Assembly (NCBI GenBank): GCA_007120465.1
Contig: SKNO01000183.1
Span: 1-33,479 of the forward strand
Direction of reading: 5' to 3'
Length of the DNA: 33,479 nucleotides
Origin: Nitriliruptoraceae bacterium
GTDB lineage: Bacteria > Actinomycetota > Nitriliruptoria > Nitriliruptorales > Nitriliruptoraceae
Part shown: positions 23,882-26,453 of the stretch, piece by piece
How positions within the stretch are numbered: position 1 is the stretch's first letter
Layout of the letters: each line of letters opens with the position of its first letter
Position numbers and translations under genes: made by a program
Notes under the pieces: generated by a model
The model's input: the letters and a program-made list of their open reading frames with translations, nothing else
The model's database searches: none
Told to the model about the DNA's origin: nothing

Positions 23882-25834
23882 ATGCTCGACGGCCTGTTCC
23901 CGCTGACCGATCCGGGTGCGGTGTTCGCGGTGCTGTTCCTGCTCGTGCTGCTGGGGCCGATCGCCGCCGAACGGCTGCGCCTGCCCGGCATCATCGGGAT
24001 GATCGTCGCCGGGATGGTCGTCGGTCCGAACGTCACGGGCATCATCGGCCAGAACACCTTCATCGAGGCGATCGGGTACATCGGGCTGCTGTACCTGCTG
24101 TTCCAGGCGGGACTCGACCTCGACCTCGAGGGGTTCATGCGCTACCGGCGGGACTCGCTGGTGTTCGGGGTGCTGACCTTCGTGCTGCCGATGGTGATCG
24201 TCACCTGGGTGGCGACGGCGCTCGGGATCGAGCTGTTGCCAGCGATCATCATCGGCTCGGCGCTGACCAGCCACACGCTGCTGAGCTACAACACCGTCGC
24301 CAGCTTCGACCTGCTGAGGAACCGGGCGGTCACCGCGACCCTCGGGGCGACCCTGCTGGTGACCGTCGGCGCGCTGCTCGTGCTGGCCGTCGGGGCTGCC
24401 GCCGCCCGGGGCGACGCGACGCCGCTGTTCTGGGTCCTGTTCTCGGCAGGCCTGCTCGCCTACCTCGTCGTCGTGCTGGCCGCCCTGCCACGGTTCACCC
24501 GGTGGTTCTTCACGGGCCTCGGCCAGGAGCGGCAGGTGCGCCTGACCTTCCTGCTGTCGGGGATGGGGCTGGCCGCGGTGGTCGCCGGCCTGATCGGGAT
24601 CGAACCGATCGTGGGCGCGTTCCTCGCCGGGCTCGCCTTCAACCGCTTCGTGCCGTTCGGCACGATGATCGACGACCGTGTCCGGGTGATCGGGCGCAGC
24701 GTGTTCATCCCGGCGTTCCTGATCACGACCGGGATGATGCTCGACCCGTTCGGGTTGTTCGCCGACCCACGGGCGCTGCTGCTTGGTGGCGCGTTGCTCG
24801 GTGCCTGCGTCGCGTCGAAGTGGTTGGCGGCCGATCTGTCCGGCCGCCTGATGGGTGCGAGCCGTCCCGAACGGGGGGTGATGTTCTCCCTGTCGGTCGG
24901 GCAGGCCGCAGGCGCGCTGGCCGCGGTGATCGTTGCGCGCGAACTCGGACTCGTCGGGCAGGTCGAGGTGAACGCGATCGTGCTCGTGATCCTGCTGACC
25001 GCGCTGATCGCTGGATGGACCGCGGACCGGCACGCCCCCCGGGTCGAGGCGCGGCACCTCGGCGCCGCAGCGATGGGTACGCGCGTGGTGGTGCCGGTGT
25101 CGAACCCGCGCACCGTCGGCTCGCTGGTCCGCATCGCGGCGCAGGTCGCCGCTCCCGACTCGGGCGCGGTGGTCGCGGTCAACGTCCTGCCCTTCGATGC
25201 CCGGCCGGAGCAACTGAAGGTGCACCGGGACCTGGCGACGCAGGCCGAGAAGGTGGCGCTGGCATCGGGCGCCGAGGCGTCCACCTCGGTGCGGATCGAC
25301 GCGTCCACCGTCGATGGGGTGCTCCACACCGTCGTGGAGCAGAGCGGCACCGCGTTGGTGATGGGCTGGAAGGGGTACGCCAACGCTCGGGAGGGGCTGT
25401 TCGGGTCGGTGATCGACCAGGTCGTGTCACGCAGCCCGGTACCGGTGCTCGTGTGTCGCCCGGGCGACGACGACGCCACCAGACGGGTCGTGGTCGTGAT
25501 CACCCAGGAGGACGTCGGACCCGCCGGCGAGATGGGCACGCACCTGGCGCTGGAGGTCGCGTCACGGATCGCGCGACAGGCCGAGGTCCGGATCGTCGCC
25601 GTCACCGACGTGGAGGAGACGCTGGTCCGGCCCCGCCTCCAGGCGGTACGCGACGGCGACGCGATCGAGGTCGTCGCGCTCGAAGGGGTCGTGGGGCGGC
25701 TCAACCGGGTGTTGCAGCCCGGTGACGTGGTCATCACGGGGATGCCGCCGGCGACGAGCCGGCTCGGCCGCGGTGCCCGTCGCCTCGCGCGGGCGGCGTC
25801 GGGCCGGACCGTGATCGTGGCGGTCCCCCACTGA
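23882..25834 (+). CDS. CPA2 cation:proton antiporter with C-terminal universal-stress-protein domain
   Basis: 650 residues. The first ~385 residues form a Kef/NhaS-like antiporter with about 12 membrane segments: ERLRLPGIIGMIVAGMVVGPNVTG, YLLFQAGLDLDLEGF (family FxxGLxxD block) and GIEPIVGAFLAGLAFNRFVP. CPA2 members exchange Na+ or K+ for H+. A cytoplasmic part from about 400 resembles a universal stress protein, with RVVVPVSNPRTVGSLVRIA, ALVMGWKG, and the GSVIDQVVSRSPVPVLVCRPG nucleotide-binding end. A second, shorter USP-like repeat (RRVVVVITQEDVG ...) runs to the C-terminus. The USP part probably senses ATP or c-di-AMP-like ligands to gate transport. ATG at 23882 has GAGG with an 8-nt spacer. 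Convergent with the Fur gene across the hairpin repeats. Confidence 0.87.
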   Translation: MLDGLFPLTDPGAVFAVLFLLVLLGPIAAERLRLPGIIGMIVAGMVVGPNVTGIIGQNTFIEAIGYIGLLYLLFQAGLDLDLEGFMRYRRDSLVFGVLTFVLPMVIVTWVATALGIELLPAIIIGSALTSHTLLSYNTVASFDLLRNRAVTATLGATLLVTVGALLVLAVGAAAARGDATPLFWVLFSAGLLAYLVVVLAALPRFTRWFFTGLGQERQVRLTFLLSGMGLAAVVAGLIGIEPIVGAFLAGLAFNRFVPFGTMIDDRVRVIGRSVFIPAFLITTGMMLDPFGLFADPRALLLGGALLGACVASKWLAADLSGRLMGASRPERGVMFSLSVGQAAGALAAVIVARELGLVGQVEVNAIVLVILLTALIAGWTADRHAPRVEARHLGAAAMGTRVVVPVSNPRTVGSLVRIAAQVAAPDSGAVVAVNVLPFDARPEQLKVHRDLATQAEKVALASGAEASTSVRIDASTVDGVLHTVVEQSGTALVMGWKGYANAREGLFGSVIDQVVSRSPVPVLVCRPGDDDATRRVVVVITQEDVGPAGEMGTHLALEVASRIARQAEVRIVAVTDVEETLVRPRLQAVRDGDAIEVVALEGVVGRLNRVLQPGDVVITGMPPATSRLGRGARRLARAASGRTVIVAVPH

Positions 25835-25844
25835 CCAGTGGGCC

Positions 25845-25999
25845 TGCGAGAACCTGGGCGTGGGGCGAGGTTCTTGCACCGTCGGGGTGTGGCGGTCCGG
25901 TCGGGTGCGAGAACCTGGGCGTGGGGCGAGGTTCTTGCACCGTCGGGGCGTGGCGGTCCGGTGGGGTGCGAGAACCTGGGCGTAGGGCGAGGTTCTTGC
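25845..25999 (+). repeat. Three tandem hairpins on a 61-bp period between convergent genes
   Basis: Hairpin units lie at 25845-25878, 25906-25939 and 25967-25999. Copies 1 and 2 are identical over 34 bp; copy 3 differs by one loop base (GTAGGGCG for GTGGGGCG) and its last base. Each folds as GCGAGAACCT pairing with AGGTTCTTGC around a 12-nt loop. On the plus transcript the one imperfect pair is G-U; on the minus transcript it is an A-C mismatch, so the stem is stronger in RNA from the antiporter gene. The two 27-bp spacers differ at only two positions, so the whole 61-bp unit was duplicated. The array starts 11 bp after the antiporter stop and ends 31 bp before the Fur stop, which fits a terminator. 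It may belong to a dispersed repeat family. Confidence 0.8.
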
Positions 26000-26030
26000 G
26001 CTCCGGACGGCGTCGACCGGGCGGGTCGGT

Positions 26031-26453
26031 TCAGGCGCCGCGGCAGCGGCGGCAGCGGCCGTGCACGACGAGCTCCACCTCGTCGACCTCGAAGCCGTGG
26101 CCCTCGTCGAGGTGCTCGCGGATCTGTGCGACGAGCGACCCGATGTGGTGGTCGACCTCGCCGCAGGAGGTGCACACGAGGTGGAAGTGCTCGTCGGGGT
26201 GGGCCGGCTCCCACCGGGCGGCGTCCCGGTCCCCGAGCCGGGTCATCCGCGCCAGGCCGAGCTCCTCGAACAGCGCGAGCGCCCGGTAGATCGACGCCTG
26301 GTCGACCTGGCCCGCGAGCTCGGTGGCCAGCTCCTCGACCGTCACGTGTCCCGACGCGCTGATGAGTGCGTCCCAGACGAGCCGCCGCGGACCGGTCGCG
26401 CGGTACCCCTCCTGCCGGAGGGTCCGGTCCAGCTCGACCGTCGAGGGATCCAT
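26031..26453 (-). CDS. Fur family transcriptional regulator
   Basis: 140 residues. A winged-helix DNA-binding domain (about 10-82, YRATGPRRLVWDALISASGHVTVEEL ... DQASIYRALALFEELGLARM) is followed by the dimer/metal domain with HPDEHFHLVCTSCGEVDHH. Ligand candidates are His85, His89, His91, Cys94, Cys97, His102 and His103, and the C-terminal CRRC (Cys134, Cys137) completes a structural zinc site. This could be Fur, Zur or another metal or peroxide sensor; the neighbours (helicase, antiporter) do not settle it. No metal transporter is nearby. ATG at 26453 has no ribosome binding site and follows a -10 box by 6 nt, suggesting a leaderless message. Confidence 0.92.
   Translation of the reverse strand: MDPSTVELDRTLRQEGYRATGPRRLVWDALISASGHVTVEELATELAGQVDQASIYRALALFEELGLARMTRLGDRDAARWEPAHPDEHFHLVCTSCGEVDHHIGSLVAQIREHLDEGHGFEVDEVELVVHGRCRRCRGA

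What the first reader, a model, noticed from the sequence alone, without database searches (positions are those of the whole stretch)
25845..25999. Tandem 61-bp hairpin array with strand-biased pairing
Three nearly identical hairpins with nearly identical 27-bp spacers sit between convergent genes. The imperfect pair is G-U in the plus-strand RNA and A-C in the minus, conserved in all three copies. Selection on RNA structure from the antiporter transcript would explain this. Identity of copies 1 and 2 points to recent duplication. The unit resembles a dispersed element.
Basis: partly seen in the sequence, partly recalled or inferred. Interest (0 to 1): 0.55.

Follow-up and report, generated by a model that had tools for sequence, protein, structure and literature searches.

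The report
Phased palindrome doublets between genes
The three hairpins are one copy of a dispersed DNA element that salt-lake actinobacteria carry in many gaps between genes: each genome has its own palindrome, but the copies nearly always sit 61-62 or 72 base pairs apart, as if a protein that pairs them measures the distance.

Summary
The array is real: three 34-bp imperfect palindromes, period 61, at 25845-26000. It is one of 8 arrays found in this genome. In relatives the same gap is almost empty (0-11 nt in 6 of 13), so about 190 bp was inserted here. Other Nitriliruptoraceae carry comparable arrays built from other palindromes. Spacing is 61-63 bp in G000, G003, G001, G004 and G010, and 71-72 bp in G012, G023, G026 and G027: two classes one helical turn apart, nothing between 64 and 70. 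Half-sites vary independently, so base pairing is not what is conserved. The G-U wobble is not fixed (10 of 15 copies), and array orientation ignores transcription. Copies lie head-to-tail, spacers do not fold, and no IS200-type (Y1) transposase is found in 35 family genomes, so these are not RAYT-driven REPINs. Best reading: a REPIN/STAR-like non-autonomous DNA element, recognised in pairs by an unknown protein that measures 6 or 7 turns, favouring gene 3' ends. Geometry, insertion and dispersal are shown; the protein and the movement are inferred.

The parts
25837..26027 (.). inserted element as a whole, about 191 nt = 3 x 61 + 8; ends approximate
   Evidence: the gap between the two stop codons is 196 nt here but 0-11 nt by projection in G002, G003, G012, G015, G027 and G034
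25845..25878 (+). palindrome copy 1 (13-bp arms, 8-bp asymmetric centre)
25879..25905 (.). spacer 1, 27 nt, locus-specific
25906..25939 (+). palindrome copy 2, identical to copy 1
25940..25966 (.). spacer 2, 25 of 27 identical to spacer 1
25967..26000 (+). palindrome copy 3, two differences
26001..26027. 27 nt after copy 3; possibly a decayed third spacer (my reading by eye; the ungapped comparison gives only 5 of 27)
23882..25834 (+). left neighbour: Na/H exchanger with Usp domain, ends 10 nt before copy 1
26031..26453 (-). right neighbour: Fur-family regulator, stop codon facing the array

Best explanation
The array is one insertion of a non-autonomous, non-coding, dispersed DNA element of Nitriliruptoraceae. 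The unit is a 28-35-bp imperfect palindrome P plus a locus-specific spacer S, present as (P S)n with n mostly 2, sometimes 3-4, all copies head-to-tail. SHOWN: it is inserted at gaps that are empty in relatives; related units occur at many intergenic loci per genome; copy number changes by local tandem duplication; P is genome-specific; spacer sequence is free while its length is fixed, so that successive P centres lie 61-63 bp (6 turns) or 71-72 bp (7 turns) apart; it is constrained as a DNA dyad, not as a base-paired RNA. INFERRED: a protein binds P as a dimer, two dimers dock on the same face of the helix 6 or 7 turns apart, and this paired complex copies or moves the doublet within the genome, much as a REP doublet is the mobile unit of REPINs, but with an enzyme other than a Y1/RAYT transposase. 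Recognition sequence turns over between species; the geometry does not. Arrays survive mainly at gene 3' ends because insertion there is least harmful.
For: Dispersed in own genome and in relatives. Empty sites: window locus; G012:C31 locus, where 212 nt of the query is missing in G034. Shared spacers at non-orthologous loci of one genome: G012 C81 and C136 from -7 to +128, G012 C31 and C113 spacer only. Spacing: G000 61 x6, 62 x4; G003 61 x3, 62 x1; G026 72 x8, 71 x1; G023 72 x19; G012 72 x20, 71 x1; G027 72 x2; G001 62 x9, 63 x2; G004 62 x11, 61 x1; G010 62 x4. A scan not tuned to any motif or period found tandem palindromes in arbitrarily sampled stretches of G001, G010 and G004, each at period 62. 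At orthologous arrays the spacer was replaced but stayed 40 nt (L080/L107, L111/L116). Outside P nothing is conserved over 35 doublets of G012 and G023. Half-sites do not co-vary. Direct orientation closer in 60 of 66 adjacent pairs, inverted in 1, tie in 5. Flank repeats the spacer at the P edge (exact run of 6 or more) in 13 of 55 doublets; for right flanks 9 of 55 against 4 of 552 mismatched comparisons, for left flanks 6 of 55 against 0 of 552. No match in phage or plasmid records.
Against: No enzyme or binding protein was identified. No event of movement was seen; the empty sites are between species, so deletion in relatives is not strictly excluded, though several genera share the empty state. 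Orthologous arrays persist between G012 and G023, so movement is slow and some arrays may be kept by function. Outliers of spacing: one 62 in a 72-type genome, 98 and 109 between doublets of G012 and G023, one 124 in G001, 78 in G017. The G026, G000/G003 and G012/G023/G027 palindromes share GCGAGAA or a close form of it, so these are not independent inventions. Convergent preference would also fit a terminator.
Confidence: 0.55

Rival explanations
1. Chromosome-organisation or nucleoid sites: a host DNA-binding protein bridges or loads at phased doublets, and the sites spread by insertion and are kept by selection.
For: fixed spacing with free spacer and vertical persistence of arrays between G012 and G023; no coding content; all arrays intergenic
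Against: sequence turns over even within one genus (G000, G001 and G003 differ); the G025 samples (10 stretches, 200 kb) gave no such array, the one palindrome hit there being a period-36 simple repeat; empty sites show gain at arbitrary gaps
Confidence: 0.17
2. Bidirectional transcription terminators or 3'-end stabilisers without a U tract, used at convergent gene ends.
For: 19 convergent, 24 codirectional, 7 divergent gaps among 50 arrays with both neighbours called, against 27/115/50 in other gaps of 40 nt or more (Fisher convergent/divergent p=0.0012); in codirectional gaps the median distance is 94 nt from the upstream 3' end and 185 nt from the next start; very stable fold of the whole array; G001 has a different hairpin doublet in the same antiporter-Fur gap
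Against: no pairing constraint; no T tail; divergent cases; orientation 2:2 against transcription in G000; fixed spacing is not needed for termination
Confidence: 0.13
3. REPIN/REP element mobilised by a RAYT (Y1) transposase.
For: REP doublets in P. fluorescens also have fixed distances, 71 and 110 bp (PMC3116915, passages); intergenic, near 3' ends
Against: PF01797 found in 0 of 35 family genomes, while 5 of 14 control genomes ring; doublets direct, not inverted; spacers do not fold, mean z -0.15 over 66
Confidence: 0.05
4. Mini-CRISPR arrays (repeat 28-34, spacer 27-40).
For: geometry of repeat plus fixed-length spacer
Against: spacers within multi-copy arrays are mostly near-identical and the flank repeats the spacer; dozens of dispersed 2-copy loci; cas genes were not searched
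Confidence: 0.03
5. Site-specific recombination sites (13-8-13, as in loxP; recalled) that mark gene-cassette boundaries.
For: 34-bp, 13-8-13 layout; homology between G012 and G023 breaks near arrays, e.g. 1.7 kb extra in G012 beginning within 2 nt of the position matching a P edge of G023 (L079/L108)
Against: adjacent gene-sized indels seen at only 3-4 loci and without matching P at the far end; no recombinase tied to arrays; no recurrent neighbour gene family
Confidence: 0.07

Closest known systems
REPINs / REP doublets (Bertels and Rainey 2011, PMC3116915; passages read)
   Same: dispersed intergenic palindromes, doublet as the unit, fixed distance (71 or 110 bp), free spacer sequence, genome-specific sequence
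   Different: REPINs are inverted pairs whose spacer forms a hairpin and are tied to a RAYT; these are direct pairs, the spacer does not fold, and no Y1 protein is found
STAR elements of staphylococci (Purves et al. 2012, PMC3532100; abstract and sections 3, 7, 11 read)
   Same: interspersed intergenic direct repeats, locus-specific spacers that are near-identical within a locus, copy number changes locally, different loci in each species, function and dispersal unknown
   Different: the STAR repeat is a 14-bp GC-rich motif with one signature in all species; here a 28-35-bp palindrome whose sequence differs between species while spacing stays fixed
GTAG/CGTC REP dimers (Di Nocera et al. 2013, PMC3733652; passages read)
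   Same: dimers with spacers of similar length, preference for convergent and unidirectional gaps
false-CRISPR elements (PMC5294841, BMC Bioinformatics 2017; passages read)
   Same: repeat-spacer look without spacer diversity
   Different: that class is defined by exclusion and has no conserved spacing
ERIC, MITEs (recalled; ERIC also mentioned in PMC3532100)
   Same: small non-autonomous intergenic insertions
   Different: no long terminal inverted repeat around a core; the unit is a tandem pair of short palindromes

Membership tests
REPIN / REP-RAYT | RAYT (Y1) transposase in the genome | tested here: not met
   PF01797: 0 of 35 family genomes, controls ring in 5 of 14; own assembly is 80.5% complete
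REPIN / REP-RAYT | two REPs inverted | tested here: not met
   direct closer in 60, inverted in 1, tie in 5 of 66
REPIN / REP-RAYT | spacer able to form a hairpin | tested here: not met
   66 spacers, mean z -0.15, 3 below -2
REPIN / REP-RAYT | fixed distance between members of a doublet | tested here: met
   61-63 or 71-72
STAR element | interspersed intergenic direct repeat with locus-specific spacer | tested here: met
STAR element | signature T(G/A/T)TGTTG(G/T)GGCCC(C/A) | tested here: not met
   by eye: no such motif in the array sequence or in the palindromes listed
CRISPR array | diverse spacers within an array | tested here: not met
   25 of 27 identical in the window; near-identical in L090
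CRISPR array | cas genes | not tested
   no search made
intrinsic terminator | G+C hairpin followed by a T run | tested here: not met
   0 found in 25700-26150
conserved RNA structure | pairing kept when bases change | tested here: not met
   observed pairing not above shuffled halves in G000, G026, G012+G023+G027, G001
known Rfam RNA | match at gathering score | tested here: not met
   0 in the window
tyrosine-recombinase core site (loxP type) | recombination between sites by a recombinase | not testable with these tools
   layout 13-8-13 only

The most novel reading that the evidence does not exclude
A spacing code: in this bacterial family the conserved feature of a dispersed element is not a sequence but the distance between two dyads, 6 or 7 turns of the helix, read by an undescribed fast-evolving protein that each lineage re-tunes to a new palindrome. 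This would be a new, Y1-independent class of paired-site mobile DNA, or a host bridging system fed by it.
Probability: 0.33. Interest if true: 0.78.

Novelty: new variant of a known kind. Interest (0 to 1): 0.58.

Why it matters
Short dispersed palindromes are common in bacteria, but what spreads them is known mainly for RAYT systems. Here palindromes with several different sequences obey the same ruler in several genera that lack the known enzyme, with two settings one helical turn apart. That gives a sharp, testable prediction (change the spacer by 10 bp or by 5 bp) and a search handle (the ruler, not the sequence) for an unknown DNA-pairing protein. It also warns that such arrays can be miscalled as CRISPRs or RNA hairpins.

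Tried and rejected
RNA-structure selection: rejected by the half-site shuffle test and by orientation against genes. Note that in G000 and in G012/G023/G027 some positions pair less often than chance (pairs 11/22 in G000, 8/25 and 13/20 in the others), so conserved mismatches, as in a folded single-strand substrate, are not excluded.

REP/RAYT: rejected. Rfam: nothing. Coding repeat with 24-residue period (72 = 3 x 24): rejected, arrays lie between called genes and 61/62 are not multiples of three. A recurrent neighbouring gene family that could be the mobiliser: none stood out among 381 called proteins. Gene-cassette reading: only a few adjacent gene-sized indels, not consistent. Wider pattern scan of 84,980 species genomes: 80 loci listed, 47 from records titled Nitriliruptoraceae or Nitriliruptorales; the other 33 are scattered over unrelated taxa and mostly look unrelated (the script stopped with an error before printing L190 and L195, and I did not give it L174). 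Outside the family: no tandem pattern in the 31 other genomes of the class; de novo samples there were small (225 kb). G025, G014, G029 and G005 samples gave no phased doublet (one period-36 simple repeat in G025).

Literature: 'Nitriliruptoraceae palindromic' 1 unrelated paper, 'Nitriliruptor repeat intergenic' 3 unrelated, general repeat searches showed nothing with this spacing in the listings; only open-licence PMC text was searched.

Full report
OBSERVATION. The window holds three 34-nt imperfect palindromes at 25845, 25906 and 25967 with 27-nt spacers, 25 of 27 identical. Dinucleotide shuffles give none. The array lies between the stop codons of a Na/H exchanger with a Usp domain and a Fur-family gene.

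IN THE SAME GENOME. The window is contig C63 of a 294-contig, 80.5%-complete assembly, G000. Searching with mismatches gives 15 copies in seven arrays (C63, C82, C212, C223, C224, C234, C261) and a three-copy variant array on C77. All are direct tandem copies with period 61 or 62. P is conserved between loci, the spacer is not. In several arrays the flank repeats the beginning or end of the array's own spacer, as expected from local tandem duplication.

IN RELATIVES. Of 66 genomes of the class, seven carry tandem GAGAA-type palindromes and all are in the family. Named records of these are titled Nitriliruptoraceae or Nitriliruptorales. G003, in the same genus, has another palindrome at 61/62. 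G026 (another genus) and G012, G023, G027 (a third) have palindromes at 72, in 49 of the 51 adjacent pairs of the 71-72 class. G012 also holds one doublet at 62. G017 shows 78 at two contig ends with near-identical sequence, probably one locus.

OTHER PALINDROMES, SAME RULER. A scan that knows neither motif nor period, run on stretches chosen without regard to arrays, found tandem palindromes in G001, G010 and G004. All three have period 62 and palindromes unlike that of G000. Searches with those palindromes showed them to be dispersed: in G001 26 hits, adjacent spacing 62 nine times, 63 twice (C63 and C159, probably the same locus on two contig ends), 124 once; in G004 31 hits, 62 eleven times and 61 once; in G010 two triplets at 62 (the second triplet lies in a stretch fetched because of a pattern hit). 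Two further tandem hits were simple repeats of period 52 and 36. A hairpin doublet at 77 in G001 is known at one place only. Together, the 61-63 class has 41 adjacent pairs in five genomes and the 71-72 class 51 in four, with nothing from 64 to 70. The difference, 10-11 bp, is one turn of B-DNA; 61.7 and 72 are 6 and 7 times 10.28.

SPACING, NOT SPACER. Over 35 doublets of G012 and G023, positions outside P carry no more information than base composition gives, without indels. At orthologous arrays the spacer can be replaced altogether and still be 40 nt (L080/L107, L111/L116).

DNA, NOT RNA. If base pairing mattered, left and right halves would co-vary. They do not: pairing at variable positions is at or below that of shuffled halves in G000, G026, G012+G023+G027 and G001 (157 of 200 against 158.0). 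With G-U pairs allowed G026 is slightly above shuffled (99 against 96.8, 23% of shuffles reach it). The G-U pair is G-T in 10 and A-T in 5 of 15 aligned G000 copies. Direction relative to transcription in G000's codirectional gaps is 2:2. The whole array does fold strongly on paper (z -7.8 on the plus strand, -3.8 on the minus), but any set of near-perfect palindromes would.

INSERTION. In relatives the exchanger and Fur stop codons are almost adjacent: 0-11 nt by projection in G002, G003, G012, G015, G027, G034; longer unrelated gaps in G010 (30), G021 (42), G024 (53), G031 (63), G007 (72), G001 (128) and G030 (1060). I saw this P in none of the twelve gaps printed in full; the G030 gap was printed only at its ends, and the P pattern search found no match in G030. 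Of the 30 loci returned I examined 17, own included; of the 16 relatives 3 lacked one of the two genes and were dropped. So about 190 nt, roughly 3 x 61 + 8, was inserted in the G000 lineage. A second case: 212 nt of the G012 C31 locus are missing in G034. Within G012, arrays at C81 and C136 share spacer and 24 nt beyond the second palindrome, and arrays at C31 and C113 share the spacer only. These are marks of copying between loci.

CONTEXT. Every array with two or more copies in the fetched regions lies between called genes (overlap of up to 40 nt tolerated): of 50 with both neighbours, 19 convergent, 24 codirectional, 7 divergent; convergent enriched against other gaps (p=0.0012; 13 arrays at contig ends were not classed). 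In codirectional gaps they sit nearer the upstream 3' end. One G004 array and one G010 array sit within 8-23 nt of two facing stop codons.

INTERPRETATION. Known doublets with a ruler are REPINs (71 or 110 bp; PMC3116915), but these are inverted, have folding spacers and a RAYT. Here pairs are direct (60 of 66, 1 inverted, 5 ties), spacers do not fold, and Y1 transposases are not found in any of 35 family genomes. STAR elements (PMC3532100) match in locus-specific spacers and local expansion, not in sequence or geometry. I therefore propose a paired-site element read as DNA by an unknown protein with a 6- or 7-turn ruler, probably its mobilising enzyme. The protein, the movement mechanism and any benefit to the host are inferred. 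A host bridging protein and a terminator role remain live rivals.

LIMITS. Most assemblies used are fragmented. Gene calls come from a codon-usage script of my own, not a standard annotator. Unsampled genomes may lack or carry other palindromes. cas genes were not searched.

Noticed in passing
L296 (G001:C105) 1090-1230: In the same exchanger-Fur gap the congener G001 carries a different hairpin doublet at period 77, found only at this place in G001 at 0-1 mismatches.
   Followed up: partly
G001, G008, G011, G015, G019, G024, G028, G032 (among loci L022-L037): A single-copy palindrome of the form GCGCGAACCTCCC..GGGAGGTTCTCTC recurs once per genome in many family members; possibly a conserved terminator or operator.
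   Followed up: no
arrays of G023: Arrays lie within 350 nt of a contig end more often than expected: 7 of 20 against 2.4; arrays may break assemblies or mark variable sites.
   Followed up: partly
L077, L080, L111, L112 flanks: Short simple tandem repeats (about 9-15 bp units) often sit right beside the arrays.
   Followed up: no
L109 4091-6470 (G012:C136): The right flank of the array is repeated about 2 kb away around genes that read like a nucleotidyltransferase and a broken tyrosine recombinase (names recalled from reading, not tested).
   Followed up: no
L136 and L142 (CAUJHV010000056.1, Pseudomonadota MAG): Two places on one contig carry a GGCGAGAAGCCCCGC palindrome doublet at period 75, a possible analogue outside the group.
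   Followed up: no
L110 505-598 (G012:C170): A doublet at 62 lies beside one at 72 in the same gap, one helical turn apart.
   Followed up: partly
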